Shown here one piece after another: positions 9,675 to 60,209 of a stretch of DNA of 64,000 nucleotides. Positions within the stretch are counted from its first letter, which is position 1. Every line of letters starts with the position of its first letter. The notes under the pieces were generated by a model that worked only from the letters and a program-made list of their open reading frames with translations, ran no database searches and was not told the DNA's origin. Location: contig JAFGNA010000017.1 in the NCBI GenBank assembly GCA_016927245.1, positions 1-64,000 of the forward strand. The letters are read 5' to 3'. The stretch is from Candidatus Woesearchaeota archaeon (GTDB lineage: Archaea > Nanobdellota > Nanobdellia > Woesearchaeales > WJKR01). The translations under genes were made by a program, and so were the position numbers.

Positions 9675-9764
9675 GATGTTGGTATGTGGTTCCGGGCTCT
9701 TAAAGCTTGTCCTCGCACGAGAAACCTTTAAAAACAAGGTTGTTTTTCACGAAGCCAAACCACA

Positions 9765-9835
9765 GCCCCGTGGTGTAGCGGCCAATCATCCCAGCCTTTG
9801 GAGCTGGGGACCTCGGTTCGAATCCGGGCGGGGCT
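9765..9835 (+). tRNA. tRNA-Gln(UUG)
   Basis: GCCCCGT...GCGGGGC acceptor, CCAGC-CTTTGGA-GCTGG anticodon arm, CTCGG-TTCGAAT-CCGGG T-arm. Confidence 0.93.
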
Positions 9836-9837
9836 AT
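9825..9837 (+). repeat. att-like repeat copy 1 (CGGGCGGGGCTAT), within the 3' end of tRNA-Gln
   Basis: Identical 13-mer recurs at 10546 and 11347; 10-mer GCGGGGCTAT recurs at 12824. Confidence 0.85.
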
Positions 9838-9923
9838 TAACCTTTTGGAATACTTGAGGGGAAACGGCCTTGATTACCTATTTTTAAAGAAATTTTATAT
9901 ATTCGTTCATTTAACCACTAATT

Positions 9924-10505
9924 ATGGCTGAAGGTCGTTATACTATAATTATTCTCCCAGATAAGAATTTTTCAGATTTGGTTTTTGATATTAGAAGTGA
10001 GCTCGTTGATTCTATCGTAGTCCCGAAAGTTCCTCCTCATGTTACTTTGAGAGAAGATTTTTTTTCTGATAACATTGATGGGTTCATAGATGAATTCAGT
10101 GGTTTGATTGATCTTTTTTCTTCTTTCAATATCTCATTTTCACATGTTGACGTTTTTCAAAGAGGTCACGTTGTATATCTCGTCAACAACCACGAGCAAC
10201 TACAGGCGCTTCACGAATTAACTGTTAAGACTTCCCAAAAGTATGTTTCTACACCAAAAGAAATTGATTTTGATTGCGAACTCAACGAACGACAAAAAGA
10301 ACTTGTTGCCTTGTATCAATTACCTTTCTATTTTGAATATTATAATCCTCATATGACTCTTGTACGTTTAAATGATAATTCTAACAGAGAGTTAATTCTT
10401 AAGCATATTCAATCTAAACAATTACCAAAGATGTTCAAAGCGACTGCTGTTTGTATTTATGATAAGGTTAAAAAAGACATTTATAAGTTAATACCTTTGG
10501 ATTAG
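9924..10505 (+). CDS. 2H phosphoesterase / 2'-5' RNA ligase superfamily protein
   Basis: 193 aa; two H-x-T motifs: PPHVTLRED and NPHMTLVRL. Confidence 0.7.
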   Translation: MAEGRYTIIILPDKNFSDLVFDIRSELVDSIVVPKVPPHVTLREDFFSDNIDGFIDEFSGLIDLFSSFNISFSHVDVFQRGHVVYLVNNHEQLQALHELTVKTSQKYVSTPKEIDFDCELNERQKELVALYQLPFYFEYYNPHMTLVRLNDNSNRELILKHIQSKQLPKMFKATAVCIYDKVKKDIYKLIPLD

Positions 10506-10545
10506 AAAAACATAACTTCTATAAGCATCTTTATATAAATTATCA

Positions 10546-10559
10546 CGGGCGGGGCTATC
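10546..10559 (+). repeat. att-like repeat copy 2 (CGGGCGGGGCTATC)
   Basis: 13/13 match to tRNA-Gln 3' end; 14/14 to copy 3. Confidence 0.85.
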
Positions 10560-10707
10560 GAGGGAAAAGCGATTCCTGAGGACCTCAAAATTCAACGGGC
10601 GCTTTTCCTCTTTCAGAACCCTTTGCAACACGCATTGTTCATGAATTGAACTTGATTTTTACAAAGGACTTTTTTTGCTTTTTTTAGAAAATGAGTTTAT
10701 TGGGAGG

Positions 10708-11226
10708 TCATAATTTTTTAACAAAAGAAACAAGTTCTTTAATGTTCTTTTTATCGGTAAAGTCGACAGGTTTATTCCATGCTTGAATCATTCCTTCCTC
10801 ATCTTCTGATTTGTTCTTTTTTCTACGTAGGATGCTGATGAACATGCGCATTATGATTCTATTCTTGAAATCCAGCTTATTTTTGTCAAAACCACCTCTC
10901 AAATAGAATAGTTTTGTTTTATCATCTTGTATATTGTGTTTTGTAATATCGTCTATAACTTTTTTGTTGTATGGTGAAGCTCCTGTCGCATACACAACTA
11001 GTTTTTTTTCAGGAATTGCTTTCATGAGGTTATAAACTTTTTTTAGGCCTATTATTCCTATTGCGTGCAGACTTCCGCCATAAACTATGATATCGTATTT
11101 CTGTAGCATATTTTTATTCGCTTCTTTTTGTTCTATAATGTCTGCTTTCAAATCGTTTGCTATCCACTCAGCATATTTCTTTGTAAAGCCAGAAACTGTT
11201 TTGTAAATCACAATTGCTTTCTTCAT
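10708..11226 (-). CDS. Flavodoxin domain protein
   Basis: MKKAIVIYKTVSGFTKKYAEWIANDLKADIIE...YDIIVYGGSLHAIGIIGLKK...LVVYATGASP. Confidence 0.8.
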   Translation of the reverse strand: MKKAIVIYKTVSGFTKKYAEWIANDLKADIIEQKEANKNMLQKYDIIVYGGSLHAIGIIGLKKVYNLMKAIPEKKLVVYATGASPYNKKVIDDITKHNIQDDKTKLFYLRGGFDKNKLDFKNRIIMRMFISILRRKKNKSEDEEGMIQAWNKPVDFTDKKNIKELVSFVKKL

Positions 11227-11346
11227 ACTCGTATTTATCTTTACAACGTATATTTATATTTTTTTCTCATTATCTTGGTTCCCCCCGACCTGCTCAGTAT
11301 AGTATTGCTTTTTCCGAGGTTTCTTTAAATAGAAAGACGGAGGAGT

Positions 11347-11360
11347 CGGGCGGGGCTATC
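11347..11360 (+). repeat. att-like repeat copy 3 (CGGGCGGGGCTATC)
   Basis: 14/14 match to copy 2. Confidence 0.85.
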
Positions 11361-11406
11361 TAACATATCTGTTACTTTTTAGGGCTAATTGTTCCCTTTT
11401 GTTGTG

Positions 11407-11865
11407 CTATCTCCTCATATTCTTCAATTCTTTGTATCTTTCCTTTCTGAAATAATTGATTTCTGCAACGCCCTTTAGCAAATATCCTAAAAGAAAAGCG
11501 TATGTGTAAACCCCTTTCATCAAGAAATCTTTATTTCTTTTTTTTATCTCTGAAATTTCCTGGGAAGAATAGTTTTGTAGTTCGTTGCTTAGTGAATCTG
11601 CTTTTTCTTCTAATGATTCTTTTATTGTTCTTGCATAATCAACATTTTCTAAACTAAATAGTCTATTTTTCTTAAGGTCTTTTCTAACAGATTTTTGTTC
11701 TGACAATAAGTGAGAAATATTTCGATAGTTTTCGTGTTTATTTTTGTAATTTATCTCGTTTTGAATACCTATGGTGCTGCCTATTATGAATGCTCCTGCT
11801 GCGACTATTGCTTTCGCTTGTTTGTATCGTAAATAATTTTTACTCATTTTCTTCACTTGATACAT
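11407..11865 (-). CDS. Hypothetical membrane-associated protein
   Basis: 152 aa; two hydrophobic segments (AIVAAGAFIIGSTIG; GVYTYAFLLGYLLKGVA). Confidence 0.55.
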   Translation of the reverse strand: MYQVKKMSKNYLRYKQAKAIVAAGAFIIGSTIGIQNEINYKNKHENYRNISHLLSEQKSVRKDLKKNRLFSLENVDYARTIKESLEEKADSLSNELQNYSSQEISEIKKRNKDFLMKGVYTYAFLLGYLLKGVAEINYFRKERYKELKNMRR

Positions 11866-11968
11866 GATATGTAATCATTAAAAAGTAATAATTTCACTGT
11901 AAATATTAAATTATGTTGTTAAAAAAATAACAACATTTATATTGTGCTATTGATTATTCTTTAAGGAA

Positions 11969-12676
11969 ATGGATTTACTTGATGGACTAAAGAACGCTGA
12001 TTTAACTCCGAACGAATCAAAAGCATATCTGAAACTATTGCAAGTAAAAGAATTGAATGCAAATGAATTGGCTAAAAAAATATCTATGGATAGAAGTTTA
12101 ACTTATAGTATTTTGAATAAATTACTGGAAAAAGGCTTAGTTAGCTACAAAATAAAAAACTCAAAAAAATATTTTATTGCTTCAAAACCAATAAACTTGC
12201 TTAACAAATTGAAAGAAAAAGAATCGGTGCTAAAAGATATTGTTCCTGAACTTGAAAAGATTCAACAAACAGAAGATTTGGGCTACTCAATTGAAGTTTA
12301 TGAGGGAAAATCAGGACTCCGGTCATGGATTAATCTTATCTTAAAAGTAAAAGAATACTTTGCTTTTGGAATGACAGGTAAGGCTTATTACGAATTATAT
12401 GAAATGCCAAGGCTTGTAAAGGAATTCAAAGAGAAAAACATTAAAGGAAAATTAATTGGTTATGAACAAGATGATAAAAAAAAAACATACCATCAATTAG
12501 GTTTTGAGTATAAATATTTGCCTTTCAAAATGAGTGCTTCAACATCAATATTTGGAGATTACATTTCAATACATCACATCGGCGAAAAACCCTTAATTAT
12601 TGTAATAAAGAATAAAGAAATTGCAAATAGTTATAGAAATTTGTTTAATTATTTATGGAAAACAGCCAAAAAGTAG
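11969..12676 (+). CDS. TrmB-family transcriptional regulator
   Basis: 235 aa; N-terminal wHTH (LTPNESKAYLKLLQVKELNANELAKKISMDRSLTYSILNKLLEKGLVSY) plus C-terminal domain. Confidence 0.75.
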   Translation: MDLLDGLKNADLTPNESKAYLKLLQVKELNANELAKKISMDRSLTYSILNKLLEKGLVSYKIKNSKKYFIASKPINLLNKLKEKESVLKDIVPELEKIQQTEDLGYSIEVYEGKSGLRSWINLILKVKEYFAFGMTGKAYYELYEMPRLVKEFKEKNIKGKLIGYEQDDKKKTYHQLGFEYKYLPFKMSASTSIFGDYISIHHIGEKPLIIVIKNKEIANSYRNLFNYLWKTAKK

Positions 12677-12823
12677 GCCACGTATCTTTTTAATCAAGAC
12701 GACAGACATTATAAACCCGAAGATATTCCTTCTCGGAATACCCTTTATTGTGGTATGGGGGCTGAAAACCATGAAAAACAACGAGTCAGCCCCTAAAACT
12801 AATGGATATATGCAGATGCCCTT

Positions 12824-12833
12824 GCGGGGCTAT
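12824..12833 (+). repeat. att-like repeat copy 4 (partial, GCGGGGCTAT)
   Basis: 10/10 match to core of the other copies, at the AT-rich to GC-rich transition. Confidence 0.6.
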
Positions 12834-12930
12834 AGCTCTCTATCGGAGCATTCTGGGGCTTTTGACATGATTCCGTAGACGAACTGGTTTAATGAGAAAG
12901 ATTAAATAGGAGTTTGCATTGGACCGGCAC

Positions 12931-13236
12931 ATGGACAAGCGACTGCTCATCATCACTCTTCTTGCAGCTTTACTTCTGCTCGCAGGATGCGCGAAGACCG
13001 TAGCGGAGCTGACCAGCGACGATAGTTACGTCAACGAAAAGGTTAAGGTCAAAGGAGAAGCGAGGGCGCCGCTCAAGATAGGAACAATCTCAGGGTACGC
13101 CTTGGTGGATAAGAACGACGACGCCATCATCGTCGCCAGCGAACGACTACCAATAGAAGGAGAACGAGTCATCGCCAAAGGAACGCTCAAGCAAGGGCCG
13201 CTAGGCATAGGATATTACATCGAGGCTGAAGAATAA
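12931..13236 (+). CDS. Small lipoprotein with predicted OB-like domain
   Basis: MDKRLLIITLLAALLLLAGCAKTVAELT... lipobox LAGC. Confidence 0.65.
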   Translation: MDKRLLIITLLAALLLLAGCAKTVAELTSDDSYVNEKVKVKGEARAPLKIGTISGYALVDKNDDAIIVASERLPIEGERVIAKGTLKQGPLGIGYYIEAEE

Positions 13237-13324
13237 CACGACTTCTCTTTCATCCAGGGCTCGCTTCCACAAAAAGCCTTAAATACTACCTTTTTGTGAG
13301 CACGGAAAATCAGGGGGTGCTCAA

Positions 13325-14338
13325 GTGAAGAAACTCATCGTCATAGCATTGCTCGTCTGCTCATTATTAGTGCTTAGCGGCTGCCACATCCATTGGGGCG
13401 GGCAGACCAAGCAGGAATCAGCGACGGAGAAGAACAAGCCGTCCATCTGCTTGCGCGCCAGCTATCCTGACGTCTGCTTGCGAGGCGTCGCGTTGGAGAA
13501 CAACAATCCGCAGGCGTGCGAGCTCATGGAGGACGAGTATGCCAAGCAGTCGTGCTTGTCCATGATAGACTACGACGAGTTAGACGGTGATGATGGCGAT
13601 CAAGGCGGTTGCAAGTACGACAGCGAGTGCCCGGCCATCTGCAAGGGGGACGTGAAGTGGGAGCAGGGGTGCAACCCGCGCAAGGGCGAGTGCGTCGACA
13701 CGTTCGACACCGACTGCTCGGCTATCACCGACACTATTGCCGGCTTCGACTTCCCCCAGACGTGTATTGATGGTGAGTGCGTGCGCAACGAGGCCGAGAT
13801 AGCCGCGCAGCGAGCAGAACTCGTATCCTTGCAACAAGAGATCAGTGACAACGTCAAGCAGCTCAACGCGTACCGACAAGAGGTCAACGCGCAGAAGCTC
13901 GACGCGAACAAGAAATGCCTCAACGCGCTCGCGGACGTGACGAACATGTTCATCATCGACTCGGCGCTGAGGATGGGGGGTATTATCAACAGTGGCATCA
14001 ACTACATCGCCAAAGGGAGCAGCCTGGTCTCCTCGACGACGACGCTCACCTTCCAGAACGATGAGCTTATTGGCGTGACGAAGACGAGCACGAACTATAA
14101 TTTCGGCAATGACATCGCAGGCGCCATGGGTGACTACGCAGGACAAGTGACGGAGAAGATGTACGCGATTACCGCGGCGGAAGAGGCCAATCAGAAGCCT
14201 CCTGTCGAGGACTACATCGCGTTCTACTGCGACTATAATGAGTACCTCGGAGAGGTGTTGGAGGTCACCGCGGCGCAGCTCGACCAACAAGTGGCGATGG
14301 CAAGCGTCCTTGAAGGACAGATCAACGCGCTCTCATGA
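13325..14338 (+). CDS. Cys-rich lipoprotein, hypothetical
   Basis: GTG start; MKKLIVIALLVCSLLVLSGCHIHWGG lipobox; Cys-rich N-terminal half. Confidence 0.65.
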   Translation: MKKLIVIALLVCSLLVLSGCHIHWGGQTKQESATEKNKPSICLRASYPDVCLRGVALENNNPQACELMEDEYAKQSCLSMIDYDELDGDDGDQGGCKYDSECPAICKGDVKWEQGCNPRKGECVDTFDTDCSAITDTIAGFDFPQTCIDGECVRNEAEIAAQRAELVSLQQEISDNVKQLNAYRQEVNAQKLDANKKCLNALADVTNMFIIDSALRMGGIINSGINYIAKGSSLVSSTTTLTFQNDELIGVTKTSTNYNFGNDIAGAMGDYAGQVTEKMYAITAAEEANQKPPVEDYIAFYCDYNEYLGEVLEVTAAQLDQQVAMASVLEGQINALS

Positions 14339-14394
14339 CCTTGTGGTCTCCTCCATGATGCTGGGACGGTCATGGTTTATTTTCCTTGCAAGGG

Positions 14395-14652
14395 TTATTC
14401 TTTGCGTTTTCCTTTCATGCAGGACACGAATGAGGCTGCTTTTTTTAGTAGGGAGTTGGCTGTTGGTGACCCTGCGGGCGGGTAGCCGAGCTTGCTGAGC
14501 AGTTTTTTCGCTTTGCGCTCGTCCCCTTCGAAGGAGACGGTGCTTGTGGCTATGTCGACGTGCGCGTTGGTGAGGCCGTGCTTGCGCAGGTGCTTGGTGA
14601 TGGTGTTGGCGCACCCGCCGCATTTGAGGTTGACGATGGTTATGACACCCAT
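14395..14652 (-). CDS. Heavy-metal-associated (HMA) domain protein
   Basis: MGVITIVNLKCGGCANTITKHLRKHGLTNAHVDIATSTVSFEG; CxxC metal motif. Confidence 0.75.
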   Translation of the reverse strand: MGVITIVNLKCGGCANTITKHLRKHGLTNAHVDIATSTVSFEGDERKAKKLLSKLGYPPAGSPTANSLLKKAASFVSCMKGKRKE

Positions 14653-14705
14653 AAAAATATGAATGTGCTTTCATATATAAATCTTTCTCTTGCGGCACCA
14701 GGACC

Positions 14706-15200
14706 CTACCGCCGCGACACCGCGTCGCTGTCAGCGTCGTAGAACCGCCACTCCAAGAGGGCGTCCTCCTTGATACCGATGCGCGTCGCCCTCGCGATTG
14801 CTGGCTTGTGACCGTCATCGAGCACCTTGACTCGTCCCCCCAACGGCAGGCCGCTCTCCTGGGTGGTGATGCCCAGGCACCGGCAAAGCCTGCCAGGACC
14901 GTTGCACCCGTCACCATCAGTGGCCCGTATCAACACGGCACCTGGCCCTTCGTCCGTGGTGATGTTCAGGCAGTGGTACATGCCATAGATGAGGTACACG
15001 TAGAGGTGGCCGTACGTGTCGAACATGGGCGCGCTCCTCCTCGTCCTCGTCCGGGCGTGGCTCGCCCCGTCATCCTTGTACGCCTCGGTCTCCGTGATTC
15101 GCGACTCTCTGCCGTCCACGACGAGCAATTTACCTACGAGTTCCCGGGCCACGACGACCGTGTCGCGCCTGAAAAAATCCGCGGGCAATTCCTTTCTCAC
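14706..15200 (-). CDS. 3-methyladenine DNA glycosylase (AAG/MPG type)
   Basis: LPADFFRRDTVVVARELVGKLLVV...ITETEAYKDDGASHA...GHLYVYLIYGMYHCLNITT. Confidence 0.88.
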   Translation of the reverse strand: MRKELPADFFRRDTVVVARELVGKLLVVDGRESRITETEAYKDDGASHARTRTRRSAPMFDTYGHLYVYLIYGMYHCLNITTDEGPGAVLIRATDGDGCNGPGRLCRCLGITTQESGLPLGGRVKVLDDGHKPAIARATRIGIKEDALLEWRFYDADSDAVSRR

Positions 15201-15204
15201 CTGC

Positions 15205-15804
15205 TCAGCCTCCCTTGAGGGGGACGAATGAGAACCCGTAGTGCTTCTCCCGCGTCACCTCGCCGTCCCGCTTCTCGTACACCCACACGCTATCCCTGAT
15301 AGGGATGACCATCCTTCCCTGGTCGGCGAGCTGGTCGAGCAGCAGCCCTGGCAATTCCTCGGCGGCCGCAGAGACGAGGATGCGGTCATAAGGGCCTTCC
15401 TCTGCTAGCCCCATCCCTGTAGCTTGCCGTATCTCCGCCCAGGGATAATCATATTGCTGGAGGTTCCCCTGGCCGAACCTGACGAGCTCGGGCACGACCT
15501 CCGTGCCCTTCACCCAGCCCTCTGGGCCGGTGATGCTCGCCAGCAATGCCGTGGTCCATCCGCTCCCGCTCCCCACGTCGAGCACGCGCTGCCCCTTCGA
15601 GGGGGCGAGCCATTCGAGCATCAGGGCCACGGTGTACGGTTGGCTGTTCGTCTGGCCGTGGCCGATAGGGAGGGGTTCGTCGCGCCCTGCTTGTCCGCGC
15701 AAGGAAGGGGGCAGGAAGTCCTCTCGTCGCACCTCTCGGAACGCGCGGATGATGTGCGGGGTGCGCAGCGCGCCGTCTGTGATGAGGTCGTCGATGAGCG
15801 CCAT
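15205..15804 (-). CDS. pcm: Protein-L-isoaspartate O-methyltransferase
   Basis: MALIDDLITDGALRTPHIIRAFREVRREDFLP...QTNSQPYTVALMLEWL...VLDVGSGSGWTTALLA. Confidence 0.88.
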   Translation of the reverse strand: MALIDDLITDGALRTPHIIRAFREVRREDFLPPSLRGQAGRDEPLPIGHGQTNSQPYTVALMLEWLAPSKGQRVLDVGSGSGWTTALLASITGPEGWVKGTEVVPELVRFGQGNLQQYDYPWAEIRQATGMGLAEEGPYDRILVSAAAEELPGLLLDQLADQGRMVIPIRDSVWVYEKRDGEVTREKHYGFSFVPLKGG

Positions 15805-16107
15805 GGAGGTGGGAGGAAGGGGGCGTGCTTTATCTGTCTTTCCGCCTATCTCCTCCCGTACCTGCCTTCGAGGACGTGGAAGACTTTCATGAGGAGGTAG
15901 GCCTCTATGGGTGCTTGGGGGAACGGCGCGTTGGCGCATACTGTGTCTGCTCGTTTGAGCATCAGGGTCTCTGTGCGAGGGGGAGGGCGATGGCGGCCGC
16001 GAGCACGAACCGCTTTTTCATAACTATTTTTGATAGGGGAGAATTTCTTTTAAATGTCGTCTTTTAGCACACGAAAGTATATAAGCGAGCGTTGCGGATG
16101 GGAGTGC

Positions 16108-20008: not shown

Positions 20009-20812
20009 ATGGACCGATTGCGCACCGAACTGGAGCTCCGCGGATATTCTGACGCGACCAAGAAGAAATATCTCAAGTACAATGCAGACCTCCTAAAACT
20101 CATCGGCAAGCAAGCGGACGACATCAACAAGGACGACATCAAGAAATACTTGGCCTATTTGGTTGGAACAAAAAAGACGGCAGCTCGATCAGTGAATCTT
20201 GCCCGCGCAGCCCTGCTTTTCTTTCACAATCAAGTATTAGAAAAGAGCATCTCGGGCGTGAATGTGCCGAAAGTCCAGAAATCGCTGCCATCCGTGCTGA
20301 CGAAAGAAGAAGTCATCTCATTGATAACGGCCGCGAAGACCAGGAAAAGCAGTTTCATCATCCAACTATTATATGGTACGGGGGTTCGCGTCTCAGAATT
20401 ATGTGCTTTGAAGCGTTCTGATCTCGAACTACAGCAAGGCACGGGGTGGGTGCGCTCAGGCAAAGGAGGGAAGGACCGCATGATTCTCCTACCGCAAGAA
20501 CTCTATAAGGAATTGGAGCGGAAAACCCCTCAGAGTTTTGTTTTGGAAGGGAAGAATGGTCCCTTGTCACCTCGGACCGTGCAGGAAGTGGTGAAGAATG
20601 CTGCGAAACGGGCTAAAATAGCTAAGAAAGTCACGCCGCACACGCTCAGGCACAGTTTCGCGACGCACCTGCTCGAAGCAGGGAACGACATCAGGATAAT
20701 CCAAGAGCTGTTGGGACACGCCAATCTGCAGACCACGCAGATCTACACGCATGTCAGCAACGAGCGGAAGTTGCGCGTGCAGAACCCGTTGGACGCCCTC
20801 AACGACCGATAA
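20009..20812 (+). CDS. xerA: Tyrosine recombinase XerA/XerC-D family
   Basis: TGVRVSELCAL...GKGGKDRMI...HTLRHSFATHLLEAGNDIRIIQELLGHANLQTTQIYTHV (R, K, HxxR, H, Y residues). Confidence 0.93.
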   Translation: MDRLRTELELRGYSDATKKKYLKYNADLLKLIGKQADDINKDDIKKYLAYLVGTKKTAARSVNLARAALLFFHNQVLEKSISGVNVPKVQKSLPSVLTKEEVISLITAAKTRKSSFIIQLLYGTGVRVSELCALKRSDLELQQGTGWVRSGKGGKDRMILLPQELYKELERKTPQSFVLEGKNGPLSPRTVQEVVKNAAKRAKIAKKVTPHTLRHSFATHLLEAGNDIRIIQELLGHANLQTTQIYTHVSNERKLRVQNPLDALNDR

Positions 20813-20879
20813 GATTTAATAAGATTTATATACTATTTTCGTGTCCCTTGCCAGTTATCAAGTACGGGGGTGTGTATTC

Positions 20880-21254
20880 GTGGCAAAGAAGAGCAATCTG
20901 TGGGCGAAGATCGGCGTCTGGTCCTACGTGGTAGGGCTCGTGGTCGCTATCATCGTGGGCATCCTGGCGCAGTTCGGTGGCGCTTCCTCGATGACTGGGG
21001 GAACGGTCGCCTTGCTGGCCATACTCGGCACTGTCGTCGGCCTCTTGAACATCGGCGATGAGGAAGTGAACACGTTCCTCCTCGCGGCCGTCGCGTTCGT
21101 CGTGGCGAGCTCGGCTATGGCCTCGATATTCTCGGTCATGGGCGACTTGTTCAAGGGATTGGCGTTGTTCATGAGCGCTATCGTCGTCTTCACGGCTCCT
21201 GGGGCGCTCATCGTGGCGTTCAAGGCGTTGTACAACGTCGCGAAGAACGGGTAG
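20880..21254 (+). CDS. Hypothetical integral membrane protein
   Basis: GTG start MAKKSNLWAKIGVWSYVVGLVVAIIVGILAQFGG; 4 hydrophobic segments. Confidence 0.65.
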   Translation: MAKKSNLWAKIGVWSYVVGLVVAIIVGILAQFGGASSMTGGTVALLAILGTVVGLLNIGDEEVNTFLLAAVAFVVASSAMASIFSVMGDLFKGLALFMSAIVVFTAPGALIVAFKALYNVAKNG

Positions 21255-21313
21255 CTGACCAGATTATTTTTTATTTTTTTCTAATGCTTGCTGTTCGTCA
21301 GGAGGAGGCGTTG

Positions 21314-21664
21314 CTAGTGATTTCTGGCGCTTCTTCTCTTGAGTTGTCGCTGTTGCGAGTGCCTGATGCGGCTACGCAGGCCTGCGAAGTATTTGGAGAA
21401 GTCTGCGTAGAGCGTCTTGAGCTCTGCTGTCCCTCTCAGCGTGAGGGAGTACATTTTCTTCCTGCCGAATTGCTCGAAGCTGACAAGCCCGTGCTTGCGG
21501 AGTTCCTTGAGGGCGGGGTAGATGGTGCCTGGTGTCAACGGTCCTGTTCCTTTGCGTTTTCCTATCTTCTTAGCCAGGTCCTCGCCGCACAGGCTCTTCC
21601 TCTTGAGCTCGTGCAGGATGAGGAAGCTGAGGAATCCTTTGAGGTCGAGGAATTTCGATACCAT
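21314..21664 (-). CDS. PadR family transcriptional regulator
   Basis: MVSKFLDLKGFLSFLILHELKRKSLCGEDLAKKIGKRKGTGPLTPGTIYPALKELRKHGLVSFEQFGRKKMYSLTLRG. Confidence 0.82.
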   Translation of the reverse strand: MVSKFLDLKGFLSFLILHELKRKSLCGEDLAKKIGKRKGTGPLTPGTIYPALKELRKHGLVSFEQFGRKKMYSLTLRGTAELKTLYADFSKYFAGLRSRIRHSQQRQLKRRSARNH

Positions 21665-21993
21665 CGCTTGCTCGTACCGCCTGAATTATTTAAATCTTTC
21701 GTTATTTATTGGTTCTCCTATTTATTGGTGATACAATAGAAAAGACCGAAACAACAGCAATAAAATGATTAAGCTATGCTAAAAAACTCTAGAAAGAATG
21801 GTGTTGGAAAACACCAAGCAAAAAACCAAAAGAAGAAAACCAAATGAACAAAGCAAGAACCAACAAGAAGACAAGAAGAACAGAAAGACACCAACAAAAA
21901 CCCTACGATCCCCGACGAGAACACCTATAGAAAACTTTATAAACTTCTGCGTCGAGTGCAAACACCACCATTAGTGGCACGCGAGGCACAGCG

Positions 21994-23229
21994 ATGGAAA
22001 AAGGCCTAAAAAGACAACTACTCATTACCCTATCCCTCACCCTCACAGGACTGCCCCTCGCCACAGCGGCCAGAACCGGCATCCAACCACTCAACGGCGT
22101 CCTCGAACTCATCAGCAGCGTGTTCTACCCCTCAGCAATCCTCAACAACACAACCCTCAGGATAGGCTTCTTCAAAGCACTCTACTTCTTCCTCATCTTC
22201 GCCGTCGTCAACATCATCCTCAAAAAAGCGAAAGTGTTCCAAGGGGACGACAACTCGAAAAGAGGAGCCACGGTCGCGGCCGCCGTCTTCGCACTCATCG
22301 CCGCGTTCTTCATGCCAGCGCAAGCGTCCGAAGGGCTCGCAGGGTTCATCGTCACCATCTTCACCCTCATCGCACCCGTAGGGCTCGCAGGATTCCTCGC
22401 CTACTACTCCATGGCCAAGCTCAAGAAAGACTGGATCCAACACCTCTTCGGCCTCATCCTCCTCTTCGTCAGCTCCTTCATCATCAGCTGGACCATGGGC
22501 GCCATCCCCACGATGCGCGTCGCGCAAGACCTCACAGACACCATACTCTCCTACGCATTGCTCGCCATCAACATCCTCATCATCATCAAGCTCATACAGC
22601 TCATCAGCGCAGCGTTCAAAGGCGTCAAGCTCCCCAGCATCCGCCCAGGTGGCGGAGGTGACGGCGGCGGGGGCGGCGGAGAAAGGCCAGAACGGCCACC
22701 GAAAGAACCAGCAACCATCATGGTCCGCGTGCTCAGCGCCGACAACCAACCTTTGCCCGAGACCATTGTCGAATGGGTGCGGCGGCGACGCGTCAAGGCA
22801 CGCGACATCACCAACGCGCAAGGAAATGCCCCTACCTCAGGCCAGCCATTTAGCCTTCACCCCGTGAAGCACACGCTGCGCTGCACTTACCGCCTTGGTG
22901 ACCATCAAGAATTCGTCCCGACCCAGAACAATACGCTCGAAGACGGTCACACCGTCATCCTCAAGCAGAACTTCAGCCTCCGACGAGGGGACAACGGCAC
23001 CATCACCATAATCCTTGGTGTCAGGCAGCGAGGAGAAGGAGGAGAAGACGGCGGAGACGAGGACTTCTGCCCCCGCATCACCAACCTCAGGCTCATCCAA
23101 CCAGAAGTGCTCCGCGCAGAAGCAGTCATAGACGCCCAGGAAGCACAGCTCGACGTGCAAGGAGCGGAGCAAGACGTGCGACAAGCGACCGTGGAAGGAC
23201 CACCAGCACAAGGGGGTGAGCGACCATAG
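21994..23229 (+). CDS. Polytopic membrane protein with Gly-rich linker and C-terminal soluble domain
   Basis: 411 aa; about 5 TM segments, PGGGGDGGGGGGERPERPPKEP linker. Confidence 0.65.
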   Translation: MEKGLKRQLLITLSLTLTGLPLATAARTGIQPLNGVLELISSVFYPSAILNNTTLRIGFFKALYFFLIFAVVNIILKKAKVFQGDDNSKRGATVAAAVFALIAAFFMPAQASEGLAGFIVTIFTLIAPVGLAGFLAYYSMAKLKKDWIQHLFGLILLFVSSFIISWTMGAIPTMRVAQDLTDTILSYALLAINILIIIKLIQLISAAFKGVKLPSIRPGGGGDGGGGGGERPERPPKEPATIMVRVLSADNQPLPETIVEWVRRRRVKARDITNAQGNAPTSGQPFSLHPVKHTLRCTYRLGDHQEFVPTQNNTLEDGHTVILKQNFSLRRGDNGTITIILGVRQRGEGGEDGGDEDFCPRITNLRLIQPEVLRAEAVIDAQEAQLDVQGAEQDVRQATVEGPPAQGGERP

Positions 23230-24689
23230 CGAAAGAGCAGCCCCAAAGACGAGAAACGAAGCAGGAGAAGGTACCTGCCTGGTTCTTCACCACGTGGTGG
23301 GCGCTCAAGGACGCCGCCACGGCGCGCAAGCTCCAGCACGACAAGACCTATCCGACCCAAGAAGCATCACCCATGCAAGCAAGGGCCACGCCCAAAGAAC
23401 CGACTGGCGACTTCTTCAAGCCGGCGAGCGGCACGCCCATAGGGATACGCCTCGGACAGGACGGCATCGCGCACGCGCACGAACCCCTCGCCAGGGACAT
23501 CGCCTATCCCCAGGCGCTCCAAGCATCCCACCCGTTCATCGCGTTCGGCATCGCGCACGTCGCGCAGCAAGAGCTAGAGAAGCTCAAGGACATCAAGCAC
23601 ATCAACGACATCCAAGGACTCGACCCGACCAACCTGGAATGGCACTGGGCCTACGAGCGCATAGACCAAGGAGAAAACGAGGAGCACGGCCGCATCGCCG
23701 GGCGCGTCATCAACCAGACGATGGTAGCGGAGAAAGGCCTTGACCTTACCAAGCCCGCGGACATAAAACGGGCGATCGACGACCCCGCCCTTGGCGTCAA
23801 GCACCGCGAGGTACGTCTCTTCCTCCATAGCGAGAAGCACGCCTTCGACCACCAGCAATCCGACAAGCAAGGCATGTTCGTCTTCCTCCGCCTCCCTGTG
23901 AACAAGCAGCTCCAGCTCAGGACGGAGTACAACAAGAAGACGTACACGCAAGTCATCCCCGCACGGCAAGAAGGCGTCGCGGAAGGCTACTTCACCATCG
24001 CCCCTGACAAGGTCAAGGTGTGCGTCATCGCCGTCCCCGGCCCGAAGGGCAAGCGGCCAAAGCAGCCTATCGACGAGCCGCAACTCGCCATAGGCGTAGG
24101 CACGCAGGAAGAACGCATCGACGCGCTCACCAAGCGCGTCGTCATGAGCGGGCTCAAGGGGTGCAAGGAGCACATCTACACGGAAGGGTCCGTCAAGCTC
24201 GACAAGGAACTCCTCGACATCATTGCCAAGGACGCCGGTCTGATAAGGAACATCTACTTCCTCGACCGGCAACACCCCTCGCTCGGCATCGCGAACATCG
24301 CGAACAACTTCTACGCGCAGAAATTCGCCATCGCCGGCGTCGCGTGCTTCCGCGCCGAGCACGAAGGGAACGTCCTGAAATCCGGCGACATCAAGGAGTT
24401 CGCGGAGCGCCAAAAAGCGTACGTCACCCTCGCGGAGAAGACGACCATGCTCGCCCAGCTTCAAAAGGAGAAATCGTTCAACACTTCGATGCGGTTCTTC
24501 CCCCCGCCCGCACAAACGCACATCAAGGAGCGGCTCGAAAAAAAGTACCTGGGCGTGAACGTCGCCAGGGCCATGGAGACAGGCCTACGCAAGGAAGCCG
24601 AGGAGCTGGGAGCGTTGCTCAAGCAGCAGCTCGCGAAGACCAAGCATGACGAAACACCACCTGAAAAACCCGTAGGAGGTGATGCCTAG
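23226..24689 (+). CDS. Hypothetical soluble protein, apparent AUA start (or 23373 ATG if only the ORF-track start is used)
   Basis: Frame is open and codon-biased from ATA at 23226 (IAKEQPQRRETKQEKVPAWFFTTWWALKDAATARKLQHDKTYPTQEASPMQ...); preceded by GGGGGTGAG; no ATG/GTG/TTG before 23373. Confidence 0.6.
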   Translation: MAKEQPQRRETKQEKVPAWFFTTWWALKDAATARKLQHDKTYPTQEASPMQARATPKEPTGDFFKPASGTPIGIRLGQDGIAHAHEPLARDIAYPQALQASHPFIAFGIAHVAQQELEKLKDIKHINDIQGLDPTNLEWHWAYERIDQGENEEHGRIAGRVINQTMVAEKGLDLTKPADIKRAIDDPALGVKHREVRLFLHSEKHAFDHQQSDKQGMFVFLRLPVNKQLQLRTEYNKKTYTQVIPARQEGVAEGYFTIAPDKVKVCVIAVPGPKGKRPKQPIDEPQLAIGVGTQEERIDALTKRVVMSGLKGCKEHIYTEGSVKLDKELLDIIAKDAGLIRNIYFLDRQHPSLGIANIANNFYAQKFAIAGVACFRAEHEGNVLKSGDIKEFAERQKAYVTLAEKTTMLAQLQKEKSFNTSMRFFPPPAQTHIKERLEKKYLGVNVARAMETGLRKEAEELGALLKQQLAKTKHDETPPEKPVGGDA

Positions 24690-25660
24690 TGGTGTTCGCC
24701 ACGGCCAAGCTCAAGCTCGCCCACCTCTTCGTGAGCAGCAAGCGCCTCTCAAAGCATATGCTCAAGAACGAACGAGCAGCCACAATCATCCTCGAGCAAC
24801 TCGAGAAAGACTACTACTCCTCGCTCAGGGAAGCGCTCCAGTACGGCAGCAACCCGCAAGCGCTCTGGCTCGCAGAACAGTTCTGCAAGCAGGCCTTGGA
24901 GTTCTCCTCTAAAGCGGTGTTCAGCGAGGAGCAGGAGAGCCTGCTCTACATCATGCGCAAGTACGGCACGTTCGAAGACCTCGCCAAAGACTTCAACAAG
25001 GATACCAAGAACTACCTCCAGAAGAGCGAAGTGAGCGAGCAGACCCAGCAGAAGATGCAGGCAGTGCTCAAGAACCTCGCTGGGGAGGAACAGAAGATAC
25101 ACGGCATCATCAGGACTATCTTCAAGGAGATACGGCACGAGAAGCGGGACAAGGAGCGGTTCAAGGAGAAGATCTTCAACCTGCGCCAAGAGGCAAACCT
25201 CAGGAAAGACCTCAAGGAGATGCGCCAGAAGAGCACCGCAGAACACCAATTCTCAGAGAAAGGAGAACACCTCCTCGACGACCTGGAAAAAGAGCTCAAG
25301 CACCTCAAAGGGGACGAGAAGGCCGCGGACATCGAGGCCAAGATAGGGAAGACTCTGGACGAGTTCGAACGCGTCGTCGTCAAGGATGAGGAGCTGCTCA
25401 ACGAAGTCATCAATGACGCCGCGTACGTCATCAAGTACGCCCTGCACGAGTTCTTCCACTGCGAAGAACTTGTGGAGACGTATGAGCATTACTACTGGCA
25501 ACTCTACACGCAAGGATTCCTCGCTGAGGAGACTGCGGCAAGGGCGAAACAACTGTTCAAGGAGCTCCATAACCGACTCGACCAAAAGACCAAGGAGACG
25601 TACCGCATCATCAGGAAGTATCGCAAGAGGGCGGGCAAAGAAGAGGTGGACGCACCATAA
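24689..25660 (+). CDS. Coiled-coil hypothetical protein
   Basis: 323 aa; GTG start after GGAGGTGATG; same operon. Confidence 0.65.
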   Translation: MVFATAKLKLAHLFVSSKRLSKHMLKNERAATIILEQLEKDYYSSLREALQYGSNPQALWLAEQFCKQALEFSSKAVFSEEQESLLYIMRKYGTFEDLAKDFNKDTKNYLQKSEVSEQTQQKMQAVLKNLAGEEQKIHGIIRTIFKEIRHEKRDKERFKEKIFNLRQEANLRKDLKEMRQKSTAEHQFSEKGEHLLDDLEKELKHLKGDEKAADIEAKIGKTLDEFERVVVKDEELLNEVINDAAYVIKYALHEFFHCEELVETYEHYYWQLYTQGFLAEETAARAKQLFKELHNRLDQKTKETYRIIRKYRKRAGKEEVDAP

Positions 25661-25677
25661 CGAGGTGACTAGAGAAA

Positions 25678-26070
25678 ATGGCGCAATTCGACGAACCGAA
25701 AGGAAAGATAAGCATCATCGTAGGACTGATCGTACTGGCACTGGCCGCTATCCCCTTGCTCAACGGGTGGGGCGTGATCGGTTTCAACCTGCCGGACTTC
25801 ATCGTCAGCCTCATCCCAGCGGTCGCGATCTGGGCGTTGCCCGCGCTGGCGTTGTTCCTGTTCATCGACGCGGTGGACGAGGACGACGCCATCAAGACGC
25901 TGACCATCATCCTGGGTATCGTGTTCCTCATCGCCGGCGTCATCCAGATCCTGAACAGCTTCGGCGTCCTCGGGTTCGGCATCCCTTTCCTGGGCAGGCC
26001 GGTCGTCGCCGAGATACTATTAGGTATTGAGGGGTTGTTCCTCATCATCGCCACGTTCGCGATGAACTGA
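25678..26070 (+). CDS. Hypothetical integral membrane protein
   Basis: 130 aa; 4 hydrophobic segments; same operon. Confidence 0.65.
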   Translation: MAQFDEPKGKISIIVGLIVLALAAIPLLNGWGVIGFNLPDFIVSLIPAVAIWALPALALFLFIDAVDEDDAIKTLTIILGIVFLIAGVIQILNSFGVLGFGIPFLGRPVVAEILLGIEGLFLIIATFAMN

Positions 26071-54653: not shown

Positions 54654-54832
54654 AGGCAGTCAGGAGGAGAGGATGTTCTTATAGGTTGTGGAATGAGGGA
54701 GGATTTTTCGTGCAACACCCCCATTTCCTGGTTTGTGTAAAATAAGTGATTTGTGTAATAGCAGTCTATTCTGTGTATCAATGCTTTGTTCAATAACGAC
54801 TTAGGTTGATTCTCCATGAGGACTTTTTTTCG

Positions 54833-55129
54833 TTAGAATCCGTATTTCTTATGCGCAGCCTCTATGGAGAGTATTTCTAGTACTCGTACGAGTTTTTCTT
54901 TTTCGTCGATGATGTAGAAAGCAGTGTAGGTTCTTCCGATGTGGATCCTATAGACTTCTTCTCCCGTCACAACCAGCTTTTCTTTGTCACCAATACCCCT
55001 TCCCGGATATGGTTGTGAGAGTTTCTGCAAGTTCTTTTTGCATATAGAGATGCTTTTTTCGTCTAATGATTGCATGAAATCAACAGCCTCATCAGACAGC
55101 AATACGTCATAAGACAATTTTTTACACAT
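54833..55129 (-). CDS. RelE/ParE-type toxin
   Basis: YDVLLSDEAVDFMQSLDEKSISICKKNLQKLSQPYPGRGIGDKEKL...EEVYRIHIGRTYTAFYIIDEKEKLVRVLEILSIEAAHKKYG. Confidence 0.82.
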   Translation of the reverse strand: MCKKLSYDVLLSDEAVDFMQSLDEKSISICKKNLQKLSQPYPGRGIGDKEKLVVTGEEVYRIHIGRTYTAFYIIDEKEKLVRVLEILSIEAAHKKYGF

Positions 55130-55319
55130 CCTCTAATTTGCGCCAATTGCCTTTCCCAGCACGAGCGGCCTGAGCAAAACTAGCCAGTTCTCGCCTGTTA
55201 TGCGCCTGAACGAGTTCGCCAAGGAGCTCATCATAGGTCTGACCAGCTTCTTTTATCCGTCCGAGCTGTTTCCATCTGTCTTCCGAGACGGGGATCCGTT
55301 TCGTCATCATCTGTGCCAT
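55122..55319 (-). CDS. Antitoxin partner of RelE-like toxin
   Basis: 65 aa, MTKRIPVSEDRWKQLGRIKEAGQTYDELLGELVQAHNRRELA; overlaps toxin start by 8 nt. Confidence 0.7.
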   Translation of the reverse strand: MAQMMTKRIPVSEDRWKQLGRIKEAGQTYDELLGELVQAHNRRELASFAQAARAGKGNWRKLEDV

Positions 55320-55420
55320 ATTTACAATCAGTACAATATGTGCATTTATATATTTTGTGATTCCAACGACTGCGTCAATTTGTGTAATAATGAAGAATCC
55401 TGTGTAAAATTACCTTAAAT

Positions 55421-55458
55421 TTTTACACAAAGCCCCTCATTTCCGGCTTTGTGTAAAA
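55421..55458. repeat. Perfect 14-bp inverted repeat formed by two abutting transposon ends
   Basis: TTTTACACAAAGCC-CCTCATTTCC-GGCTTTGTGTAAAA. Confidence 0.9.
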
Positions 55459-55571
55459 TATGAGTTTTGTGTAAAAATGACAGATTCTGTGTAAGAATAC
55501 CACTGGACATGTATCGTAGTAATATTTATAATCTCTTAAACCCTTGAATTCTACGATTAGGAGGCTTTACA

Positions 55572-55820
55572 ATGGAAGAGAAGGTAAAACAAGAATTAGC
55601 ACGCAACGAAGGCTATGTGTTTTTTCTGTCCGATTACGAAGTGAGACTTGGCTGGAAAGCAGGTAGTGTTATTACCGCAGCATTTTTTAAGAGGCCCAGG
55701 GATGACTTTGATAACCACCAACCATTCACGGAAGATGAAGTCCAACAACTGATAGAAGACCTTAAAGACTTAAGTGACTGGCGACATTATCGCAGGCTTA
55801 AGAACAAGCTGAATCAGTAA
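55572..55820 (+). CDS. Small hypothetical protein
   Basis: 82 aa, MEEKVKQELARNEGYVFFLSDYEVRLGWKAGS... Confidence 0.55.
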   Translation: MEEKVKQELARNEGYVFFLSDYEVRLGWKAGSVITAAFFKRPRDDFDNHQPFTEDEVQQLIEDLKDLSDWRHYRRLKNKLNQ

Positions 55821-55851
55821 TTTAAAAATAGCAGAATCTGTGCAAAAATGG

Positions 55852-56376
55852 TTACAAGTCTATTTTCGCGCCACATAACTCACAAAACACCTTGCTCAGG
55901 GTGCAATCTCTCCCGCAACCGTTCCAATCAGAACATAGATGGCACTCTTCTTTGTTATGCTCAAGTTTTGCTGGCTGGTTGCATTTGTTGCATTTCCAGA
56001 CACCCGATACGGCGTGACTTTTGTAATCGAAGACTTCGTAGCGAAAGCCCCCACGTATAGAATAACGACCTCCTTTAAATCGGATCATATCGCCGTCATT
56101 GCCATAAACTACTCCTTTCTTCAAATCATCAGCATATTTTTCTTCTAATGCCATTCGTTCACGATGTCCGTTAATAGCTTTAGAGACCATATCATCATCA
56201 ACATACCACTCACGACCTTTTTTGTAAGCAGGCACTTCAGTGGATGCTAGTGCCACATACCCTCTTGCGTTAGCAGACTTCCTGTACCATTCGTATGCAT
56301 TTGAAAAGGCACCCGGTTCTGCTTTATATAAATCGACAGCATCTTTTAGCTTCATTCCTATTGTGGAAGTCGTCAC
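55852..56376 (-). CDS. Zinc-ribbon hypothetical protein
   Basis: C-terminal VWKCNKCNQPAKLEHNKEECHLCSDWNGCGRDCTLSKVFCELCGAKIDL. Confidence 0.6.
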   Translation of the reverse strand: MTTSTIGMKLKDAVDLYKAEPGAFSNAYEWYRKSANARGYVALASTEVPAYKKGREWYVDDDMVSKAINGHRERMALEEKYADDLKKGVVYGNDGDMIRFKGGRYSIRGGFRYEVFDYKSHAVSGVWKCNKCNQPAKLEHNKEECHLCSDWNGCGRDCTLSKVFCELCGAKIDL

Positions 56377-56461
56377 AGATAAAAAATTTTTCGTTCAAAA
56401 ACCGCGTAATAAATACATTCTCAGGGCAAAGACATTTATATAAGAATATATACCTTATAGG

Positions 56462-56702
56462 TATGGGAAGGGGACGAGGCATATTTGGTATGTCAATAGC
56501 ATCTCAAAGAGCATGGCAGAACACCATTTCTTTTATCTTCATTATCGTTGGAATATATTTGGTACTGGCATGGTTAGAAATAACCCCATTCACAGCAAGA
56601 TTTGAGTTCCTCAACAATAAAGCCAACCTGATATTGACAGCAATTATTTTAATCGTGATAGGTGTTCTGCTCAGTGAAAAAATCAAATCCCTCTTTTCGT
56701 GA
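56462..56702 (+). CDS. Small two-TM protein
   Basis: MGRGRGIFGMSIASQRAWQNTISFIFIIVGIYLVLAWLEITPFTARFEFLNNKANLILTAIILIVIGVLLSEKIKSLFS. Confidence 0.55.
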
Positions 56703-57198
56703 TGACTTAAAAGAACTCACAAGTCCGTCAAATTTTATTGTCGGACTTGTCACACCAGTTGTTATAGGTGTTATTCTAAATCAAGAAAAGAAGATTATTA
56801 CTGCACTCACAGTCACCAGTACAATGTTAGGACTCATCATTTTATACTTCTTTTTTAGATGGATCATATATTACAGAAGTGAGAGTGAGGAGAAAAAGAA
56901 ATCACAAAAAAATGGAAATAAACCACGGGTAATAAACACAAAAACTACAATACAAGAGGATGCACTCTTTATTCTTGATACAATCTACTCTTTGTATGCA
57001 AATGATCAATCAATACAAGCAACAACACTAATAAATCATTTTAAAGATTGGGAAGGGAAAAGAATCAACAAAGCATTGAGATTCTTGAACGATGAAGGGT
57101 ATATAGATTTGAAATTCATGTTAGGAAACACAAAAGGAGTCCAGAACTTCCTCTTTAAAAAGATTACAAACGAAGGAATAAAACTAATAGAAAAATGA
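56674..57198 (+). CDS. Membrane protein with C-terminal winged-helix-like domain
   Basis: Two TM segments then LINHFKDWEGKRINKALRFLNDEGYIDLKFMLGNTKGVQNFLFKKITNEGIKLIEK. Confidence 0.55.
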   Translation: MKKSNPSFRDDLKELTSPSNFIVGLVTPVVIGVILNQEKKIITALTVTSTMLGLIILYFFFRWIIYYRSESEEKKKSQKNGNKPRVINTKTTIQEDALFILDTIYSLYANDQSIQATTLINHFKDWEGKRINKALRFLNDEGYIDLKFMLGNTKGVQNFLFKKITNEGIKLIEK

Positions 57199-57443
57199 AA
57201 TGGTTCGAAAATCTATGTAGATACCATTACCGACATGAGCGCGAAATACCTGAATTGAAGAGAAAATTTGGGATTGTTAATGTTGTCGGCTCTATACTTC
57301 TCTCAGTGGCCATTATTGAATTAGTAAATCTTATTTTCATTGATAAAATCATTAAAATTATCATCCTTGCCTTCGCAGGTAGCATACTAATAATGATTAG
57401 TCAGAGTATTCATTTTATTGAGAAAAAAAGAGATGATTTCTAA
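57195..57443 (+). CDS. Small membrane protein
   Basis: 82 aa; two TM segments; ATGA overlap with upstream gene. Confidence 0.55.
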   Translation: MKWFENLCRYHYRHEREIPELKRKFGIVNVVGSILLSVAIIELVNLIFIDKIIKIIILAFAGSILIMISQSIHFIEKKRDDF

Positions 57444-58234
57444 TTAAATATTTCAACTGATTCTTCCCTCTCAGACCAAAGAAGCGTTTTTACAGAATAA
57501 GTTTCAAACTTTTTCAGGTCGTCTGGTGAAACTTTTCTCTCCTGGTCATTAATGATAACGAATTGATCAGCTGAAGCGTGAACCGTCGCACCCCCCCTTA
57601 TATCTGATAGTGTGAATAAGACCGCCCTATATCCAGTATTAGACGGGGAGTTAATAACCTTGACAATTTTTTCGTTTTCCTCTTTTTTCCTTGATGGAAT
57701 AACAAAGTCAATCTTATTGCTGAAGCCCTTTCCTTCAATCGTCACATCTCGTGTTGCAGGTATAGAATGCTCTGCAAAGAAATTGGCAACATCTTCAAAG
57801 AACAACGCTTTAACATAAGGTTTTGAAAGTATAAACATATCACCAATATTTATCATTGCTTGAATTAGTTTATGTTTGCTCTTTGCCAAATCCGACTCTT
57901 TACATTCAATGAATATTTCAGAAGTGTCGTTATCAAACCGGACCCCAAGACCATTGATGAACTGCGAGAGGATGTCTTTTCTATTTTCTGTGAGTTCAAG
58001 ATTGTTCGTTTTGAGATCATAATAAGTCATACCATCATCGGTTAATTTATAAGAATCTGATTTCTCATTGTAAACAACATAAATTCTCAAGTAGTCATTA
58101 TGTGTATCAAGGAATGGACTGTCAATGGAGGCAATTTTTACTCCTTCTTCGTTCGAGGGAATATCTTTAAAACTAATTCTTTCTCTTAGCCAATTCAAGT
58201 AATCCTCAATTAGTTTGTCCGGTTGAAGAGTCAT
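57440..58234 (-). CDS. DUF1828/DUF1829-like protein
   Basis: MTLQPDKLIEDYLNWLRERISFKDIPSNEEGVKIASIDSPFLDTHNDYLRIYVVYNEKSDSYKLTDDGMTYYDLKTNNLELTENRKDILSQFINGLGVRFDNDTSEIFIECKESDLAKSKHKLIQAMINIGDMFIL. Confidence 0.6.
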   Translation of the reverse strand: MTLQPDKLIEDYLNWLRERISFKDIPSNEEGVKIASIDSPFLDTHNDYLRIYVVYNEKSDSYKLTDDGMTYYDLKTNNLELTENRKDILSQFINGLGVRFDNDTSEIFIECKESDLAKSKHKLIQAMINIGDMFILSKPYVKALFFEDVANFFAEHSIPATRDVTIEGKGFSNKIDFVIPSRKKEENEKIVKVINSPSNTGYRAVLFTLSDIRGGATVHASADQFVIINDQERKVSPDDLKKFETYSVKTLLWSEREESVEIFN

Positions 58235-58683
58235 TTTTTCCAGTTTCCTGCGCCAGCAGATTTTTGAATTTTGATGCTCGTCTTTGCAATATTGCATAAT
58301 TCCATGAATTTCTCAATCACAGATCCAAAGTCACTAAGGTCTTTGAAACCATATTGATTTGCTGGAAATGCAAACCTGTCATTGTATCCTTCCCTATATA
58401 CATGAACATGAGGACCTGTCACTTTTACTCCACCCGGATTGATGTGCACGCGATCATCAACATCAAGCCTCAGCAATGTGAAAACACTGTGGACTCTGTG
58501 ACCACATCTCATCATTTTCAGCTCGATTTTTCCTTGTTTAATGTCAAGCGCAAATATATCGCCGTGAGCATCCGACACAACAGGTTCGCTGAGGTCAAAT
58601 GATTCGGTCAACTTGACCTCCGTCACATTTTTTAATCGTTTTGGAACTTTCAGGTATTCAGTTGCTTGATCCTGTTTTAACAT
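58231..58683 (-). CDS. DUF6978-like protein
   Basis: MLKQDQATEYLKVPKRLKNVTEVKLTESFDLSEPVVSDAHGDIFALDIKQGKIELKMMRCGHRVHSVFTLLRLDVDDRVHINPGGVKVTGPHVHVYREGYNDRFAFPANQYGFKDLSDFGSVIEKFMELCNI; ATGA overlap with next gene. Confidence 0.55.
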   Translation of the reverse strand: MLKQDQATEYLKVPKRLKNVTEVKLTESFDLSEPVVSDAHGDIFALDIKQGKIELKMMRCGHRVHSVFTLLRLDVDDRVHINPGGVKVTGPHVHVYREGYNDRFAFPANQYGFKDLSDFGSVIEKFMELCNIAKTSIKIQKSAGAGNWKK

Positions 58684-60106: not shown

Positions 60107-60209
60107 TTATTTTTTACACAAAGCCCTCATTTCCGTAAATTATTTAAATGAGCTCATTCTACACCAACCTTGTCGACTTTAAATCAACAAAAACTAGGTG
60201 TTTTCGCGC

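What the first reader, a model, noticed from the sequence alone, without database searches (positions are those of the whole stretch)
9825..12833. Integrase-free cassette array: tRNA-Gln 3' end repeated three more times, one small cargo between each pair
The last bases of tRNA-Gln(UUG) plus 2-3 nt downstream (CGGGCGGGGCTAT) recur exactly at 10546 and 11347, and as a 10-mer at 12824, all in the same orientation. They cut an AT-rich stretch into units of about 0.72, 0.80 and 1.48 kb. The cargos are a 2H phosphoesterase, a flavodoxin, and a hypothetical membrane protein plus TrmB-like regulator. GC-rich chromosome resumes on both sides. Repeats and composition are seen directly. The reading as serial site-specific integration (comparable in logic to tycheposons, pdif modules or archaeal tRNA-anchored elements) is inference. 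No recombinase lies inside, so the cassettes would have to be mobilised in trans. This is a leading candidate for an undescribed modular acquisition system.
Basis: partly seen in the sequence, partly recalled or inferred. Interest (0 to 1): 0.85.

Follow-up and report, generated by a model that had tools for sequence, protein, structure and literature searches.

The report
Archaeal gene cassettes stacked behind tRNA-Gln
Behind a tRNA-Gln gene of a small-genome archaeon, one- or two-gene DNA cassettes have been inserted one after another, each marked by a copy of the tRNA's end; similar stacks with different or reshuffled cassettes occur in many related archaea, so it looks like a simple archaeal counterpart of bacterial cassette islands.

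Summary
The repeats are real. CGGGCGGGGCTAT occurs five times in the 1.11 Mb genome: three times here, twice in a second array behind the other tRNA-Gln gene, 102 kb away. That array starts with a 3.9 kb element encoding an intact tyrosine integrase, so "no recombinase" holds for this array but not for the genome. In the only same-genus genome held, tRNA-Gln(UUG) is followed directly by the flanking PCMT-like gene, without repeats or cargo. Among 295 genomes of the order, about 20 genomes in 11 families have such tRNA-Gln units: 53 units, median 1.1 kb, nearly all without integrase; cores lie 83 on the array strand, 1 on the other, 2.4 expected by chance. A fifth of the cores are followed by a second motif at a fixed distance. 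Two Fic cassettes stand in opposite order in genomes of two families, homology confined between cores. Best reading: serial site-specific integration of cargo-only cassettes by tRNA-Gln-specific integrases acting in trans. The kind is known in bacteria (additive flexible islands, Dehalococcoides ssrA islands); an archaeal, near single-gene version was not found in the library searched. Recombination itself was not observed.

The parts
9764..9836 (+). tRNA-Gln(UUG), intact; its 3' end is the attachment site
9825..9837 (+). core copy 1 (tRNA 3' end plus T), left end of unit 1
9854..9864 (+). possible second att motif of unit 1 (TTGAGGGGAAA; 2 mismatches to TTGAGRGGRCT, usual distance)
9924..10505 (+). 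cargo of unit 1: LigT / 2H phosphoesterase, 193 aa
   Evidence: Pfam; absent from same-genus genome
10546..10558 (+). core copy 2, exact
10708..11226 (-). cargo of unit 2: flavodoxin, 172 aa
   Evidence: Pfam; absent from same-genus genome
11347..11359 (+). core copy 3, exact
11382..11387 (+). second att motif GGGCTA of unit 3, 23 nt after the core
11407..11865 (-). cargo of unit 3: 152-aa protein of unknown family
11969..12676 (+). cargo of unit 3: TrmB-type regulator, 235 aa; TrmB proteins also occur as cassette cargo in L061 (three) and L066
12821..12833 (+). core copy 4, degraded (2 mismatches), outer end of the array
15205..15939 (-). PCMT-like gene (my reading) that directly follows tRNA-Gln in the same-genus genome G001: right flank of the unoccupied site

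Best explanation
The region is a tRNA-anchored tandem array of cargo-only integrative cassettes. A tyrosine integrase that recognises the 3' end of tRNA-Gln recombines it with the matching core of a circular cassette. Each insertion regenerates the tRNA and leaves a core copy on the outer side of the new cassette, so repeated use of the site stacks cassettes outward from the tRNA. Most cassettes carry one or two accessory genes and no integrase, so they must be moved in trans by integrases of autonomous elements using the same site; in this genome the candidate is the integrase of the 3.9 kb element behind tRNA-Gln(CUG), whose 14-nt 3' end is identical. Shown by sequence comparison: repeats, common orientation, spaced second motif, unoccupied site in the same genus, integrase elements bounded by the same core, permuted cassettes. 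Inferred: the circular form, insertion next to the tRNA, trans action of this integrase, and the route between cells.
For: Five exact cores genome-wide, only at the two tRNA-Gln genes. Unoccupied site in G001 with syntenic flanks and no match to LigT or flavodoxin cargo there. Integrase element with the same core in the sister array; catalytic residues conserved. 27 of 67 integrase relatives lie just 3' of a tRNA; four integrase-bearing elements (L052, L109, L110, L131) end with a 12-15 nt copy of their tRNA's end. 83 cores on the array strand against 1. Motif GGGCTA/GGACT at +21 to +25 in 19 of 89 sites. Fic cassettes A-B in G099 and B-A in G147 with homology confined between cores. Outermost cores most diverged, p = 0.03.
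Against: No circular junction or excision was observed (assemblies only). The own integrase element lacks the +23 motif that its neighbour cassettes have, and the window units 1 and 2 match the motif only loosely. Only one same-genus genome was available. The unoccupied-site difference is 5.4 kb, not just the 3.0 kb array. No other copy of the window's own cassettes was found in another array.
Confidence: 0.78

Rival explanations
1. Decayed elements: each unit is the remnant of an ordinary integrase-bearing plasmid or provirus that inserted at tRNA-Gln and later lost its integrase by deletion. The units are debris, not mobile cassettes.
For: An integrase remnant (114 aa) lies in one unit of L065; outer cores are degraded; integrase-bearing elements do use the site.
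Against: The Fic units A and B have no integrase in either of two families, share their boundaries and differ in order; nearly all of 53 units of median 1.1 kb lack an integrase; cargo ORFs are intact.
Confidence: 0.15
2. A true integron: an IntI-type integrase with attC sites.
For: Mostly one-gene cassettes in one direction from a fixed end, and integrons have been reported from archaea including Nanoarchaeota (PMC9668308).
Against: Sites are tRNA ends, not folded attC: nine sites fold no better than shuffles, z 0.1 to -1.9. The integrase scores 22 bits against the integron-integrase cut-off of 265.
Confidence: 0.02
3. Chance or homologous duplication of the tRNA end, without site-specific recombination.
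For: The repeat is short (13 nt) and GC-rich.
Against: Genome-wide count 5 against 0 in the control, 83:1 strand bias, unoccupied site in the same genus, extended motif, homology blocks contained between cores.
Confidence: 0.02

Closest known systems
Additive flexible genomic islands at tRNA genes (Ca. Actinomarinales PMC7771536; Ca. Methylopumilus PMC10872708; Alteromonas PMC4119200)
   Same: Gene cassettes added at a tRNA, marked by direct repeats of the tRNA end; variable between close relatives; transfer between genera reported at about 75% identity; sizes from 330 bp (Methylopumilus).
   Different: Those are bacteria. Here an archaeal order; a candidate integrase with the same core is identified, a second spaced motif and permuted cassettes are seen, and units are consistently near single-gene size.
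Dehalococcoides ssrA-specific genomic islands, including members without integration module (PMC3146451)
   Same: Tandem units behind an RNA gene, short repeat of its 3' end, integrase at attL in some members, others presumed mobilised with them; extra conserved sequence next to the repeat.
   Different: Serine recombinase and ssrA there; tyrosine integrase and tRNA-Gln here; units much smaller here.
Integrons, including archaeal integrons (PMC9668308)
   Same: Tandem, mostly one-gene cassettes stacked from a fixed site; presumed site-specific exchange.
   Different: No attC fold, no IntI; the recombination site is a tRNA end.
Tycheposons (as described in PMC10872708)
   Same: tRNA-anchored cargo carriers linked to a tyrosine recombinase.
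   Different: Tycheposons are 4-200 kb; these units are about 1 kb and mostly carry no recombinase.
Archaeal tRNA-integrated elements (Thaumarchaeota, PMC6563490)
   Same: Tyrosine integrase, tRNA 3' end as target, short att repeats; tandem re-use of a site is mentioned.
   Different: Those carry their own integrase and are mostly several to tens of kb (smallest 2.6 kb).

Membership tests
Additive tRNA-anchored flexible island | tRNA at one end and direct repeats of its 3' end between units | tested here: met
Additive tRNA-anchored flexible island | content differs between close relatives at the same locus | tested here: met
   G000 against G001; G099 against G139
ssrA-island / cis-mobilizable type | units without integrase beside an autonomous unit sharing the same att site | tested here: met
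   L006 array and L062 array
ssrA-island / cis-mobilizable type | serine recombinase DsiB and ssrA target (Dehalococcoides islands proper) | tested here: not met
   tyrosine integrase, tRNA-Gln
Integron | IntI integrase | tested here: not met
   TIGR02249 22 bits against cut-off 265
Integron | attC sites that fold as single strands | tested here: not met
   nine sites, z 0.1 to -1.9
Tycheposon | 4-200 kb cargo element carrying its own tyrosine recombinase | tested here: not met
   units 0.72, 0.80 and 1.48 kb without recombinase
SSV-type integrated element | integrase gene split by integration | tested here: not met
   catalytic domain intact on one side of the core
pdif module | XerCD dif-like sites flanking modules | not tested
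   sites are tRNA ends, so this was not pursued
Active mobile cassette system | excision and circular cassettes | not testable with these tools
   no reads available

The most novel reading that the evidence does not exclude
Archaea of this order have a dedicated cassette-exchange system with the logic of an integron but none of its parts: the 3' end of tRNA-Gln is the fixed docking site, cargo-only cassettes of about 1 kb carry their own second att motif (GGGCTA or GGACTC type), and at least two integrase families shuffle them in trans, also between families.
Probability: 0.45. Interest if true: 0.8.

Novelty: new variant of a known kind. Interest (0 to 1): 0.62.

Why it matters
DPANN archaea have small genomes and how they gain genes is poorly known. 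A recognisable docking site gives a direct way to list their mobile cargo (here an RNA 2H phosphoesterase, flavodoxin, TrmB regulators, Fic proteins), to follow exchange between lineages and to test trans mobilisation. It would extend tRNA-anchored cassette islands, known from bacteria, to archaea in a reduced, near single-gene form.

Tried and rejected
Integron membership: tested and rejected. G057's 32 core hits: rejected, a separate palindromic repeat mostly at contig ends. G002, G088 and G243 core pairs: rejected as arrays because both end cores are tRNA genes. A TATA-like motif upstream of cores: not enriched. Homologues of the window's cargo elsewhere (L177-L179, L181) have no core beside them, so the window's own cassettes were not caught in another array. 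The 15-row integrase alignment was too diverse for a collection scan, two viral-contig scans gave no answer, a 4-row alignment scan of genome contigs worked. Literature searches for such arrays in Woesearchaeota or Nanoarchaeota found none, but the library holds open-licence papers only.

Full report
OBSERVATION. The 13-mer CGGGCGGGGCTAT lies at 9825, 10546 and 11347, and a copy with two mismatches at 12821, all on the + strand. The first copy is the end of tRNA-Gln(UUG), 9764-9836, plus one base. A search of the whole 1,109,711-base genome found only five exact copies, all on one strand, and none of the reversed control. GC falls from about 0.6 to 0.26-0.35 inside the units. Pfam confirms a 2H phosphoesterase, a flavodoxin and a TrmB regulator; the 152-aa protein matches nothing.

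THE OTHER TWO COPIES. They are at C5:115867 and 117571, behind the second tRNA-Gln gene (L006 1900-1994). ARAGORN calls it Leu, but by my reading it has a CUG anticodon and an intron, and its last 14 nt equal those of tRNA-Gln(UUG). The order there is tRNA, 3.9 kb element, core, 1.7 kb cassette (515-aa protein with a laminin-G-like domain), core, 0.58 kb cassette (142 aa), degraded core CGGGCGGGGCGAT. The 3.9 kb element encodes a 368-aa tyrosine integrase (PF00589) in which R182, K209, H268, R271, W293 and Y303 are invariant or nearly invariant among 15 relatives. The two cassettes share 54 bp (87%) starting at the core. So this array holds no recombinase, but the genome has a fitting one 102 kb away.

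UNOCCUPIED SITE. The only other genome held from the genus, G001, has the 13-mer just twice, at its two tRNA-Gln genes. Upstream genes are syntenic, and directly behind its tRNA-Gln(UUG) lies the PCMT-like gene that in our genome is at 15205-15939. G001 has no match to the LigT or flavodoxin cargo. The extra DNA in our genome is 5.4 kb, of which 3.0 kb is the repeat-delimited array; 12834-15204 is also extra, and its 337-aa protein is absent from G001. Behind tRNA-Gln(CUG) in G001 there are no repeats either, but the downstream genes are not syntenic there.

THE ORDER. Contigs named that coincide with fetched ones are labelled Candidatus Woesearchaeota archaeon (G162) or only archaeon (G056, G258, G282), so the order is probably Woesearchaeales; the name of our own genome is not shown. 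The pattern KGGCGGGGCTA in 295 genomes led to 24 array loci. Counting repeat-delimited units of at least 0.4 kb gives about 20 genomes in 11 families; about 12 genomes in 9 families have two or more units in a row (my count). In 256 kb of these loci there are 83 cores (at most one edit) on the array strand and 1 on the other, against 2.4 expected per strand; exact cores 56 against 0.15. The loci were chosen because they hold cores, so the strand bias, not the count, is the independent sign. The 53 units of at least 200 bp have a median of 1.1 kb and typically one or two ORFs. An automated scan marked two units with an integrase or its remnant; it missed the L006 element, whose ORF runs into the tRNA, and the element of L062, whose far core lies outside the locus, so the true number is about four.

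MOTIF AND INTEGRASES. GGGCTA or GGACT occurs within 35 nt after 19 of 89 cores, always 21-25 nt from the core, against 1-5 per 35-nt window farther out. The integrase-bearing elements L040 and L047 (same family as the own integrase, INT1) have GGGCTA, as do cassettes in our genome; the own integrase element does not. The tRNA-Gln element L146, with an integrase of a second family (INT2), has GGACTC. The pairing of motif and integrase family is a suggestion from few cases. INT1 relatives sit 3' of many tRNAs (27 of 67 non-redundant), and four integrase-bearing elements (L052 in this order; L109, L110 and L131 in other archaeal genomes) end with a 12-15 nt copy of their tRNA's end. The nearest matches in the phage collection are integrases of Geoglobus and Archaeoglobus pleomorphic viruses at about 30% identity.

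SHUFFLING. Two Fic cassettes, A and B, lie as A-B in G099 (L061 9334-10455-11415) and as B-A in G147 (L067 minus strand 2178-3115-4187). The genomes belong to different families; DNA identity is 77-80%, orientation to the tRNA is the same, and homology stays between the cores and for B starts at the core. B-A is the cyclic permutation expected if a two-cassette circle reinserts at its other core; separate moves would also do. A further two-gene block is shared by L060 and L061 (76% over 1.3 kb). G099 and G139, of one genus, share the gene upstream of tRNA-Gln but no cassette. The core farthest from the tRNA is the most diverged (0.8 more edits, permutation p = 0.03, 9 arrays), as expected if new units enter next to the tRNA.

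MECHANISM. Most likely each cassette is a circle with one core; a tRNA-Gln-specific tyrosine integrase recombines it with the tRNA end, which is regenerated while the old end moves outward. Shown by sequence comparison: anchoring, orientation, boundaries, unoccupied site, integrase elements with the same core, permuted cassettes. Inferred: circles, trans action, tRNA-proximal insertion, transfer between cells.

COMPARISON. It works like an integron but is not one: no attC-like fold, no IntI. In kind it matches additive tRNA islands of streamlined bacteria (PMC7771536, PMC10872708) and the tandem ssrA islands of Dehalococcoides, some of which lack the integration module (PMC3146451). Archaeal tRNA-integrated elements with their own integrase are well known, and tandem re-use of a site is mentioned (PMC6563490). 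Long arrays of integrase-free, near single-gene units in DPANN archaea were not found in the library searched. I rate this a new variant of a known kind.

Noticed in passing
G000:C23 about 20183-25831 (L170, minus strand): Third tRNA-anchored island of this genome: 5.6 kb of about 33% GC behind a probable tRNA-Arg with intron, ended by an exact copy of CTCCCGGGCTCATA; about nine ORFs that look like radical-SAM, kinase, phosphatase and TPR proteins (my reading), no integrase.
   Followed up: partly
window 12834-15204: Four further genes (small lipoprotein-like, 337 aa, HMA-like, DNA-glycosylase-like; my reading) missing at the same locus of G001; GC 0.5-0.6 and no recognisable core at their far end. 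Older cassettes or ordinary gene gain or loss.
   Followed up: partly
L087 4736-4861 (G114): Two tandem 58-bp units made only of core, spacer, GGGCTA motif and end: apparently empty cassettes.
   Followed up: no
L146, L062, L186, L065: Second integrase family (INT2) without NCBIfam match; next to tRNA-Gln it lies about 200-240 bp behind the core in inverse orientation; 15 of 295 genomes hold relatives, some next to other tRNAs.
   Followed up: partly
G000:C10:71369-71827 region (L059 9578-10834): Second tyrosine recombinase of this genome (418 aa), related to tRNA-linked integrases of other archaea, with no tRNA found next to it.
   Followed up: no
G057, about 30 contigs, e.g. L075, L076, L077: Palindromic repeat AAAGTTCTCGCCCTAAAGGGCGGGGCTATACCCACGAACTTT, many copies near contig ends; probably a transposon end, unrelated to the arrays.
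   Followed up: no
window 54800-60200: Second AT-rich stretch of the window, with a transposase-like ORF at 58973-60106 and several small unknown ORFs; no tRNA-Gln core.
   Followed up: no
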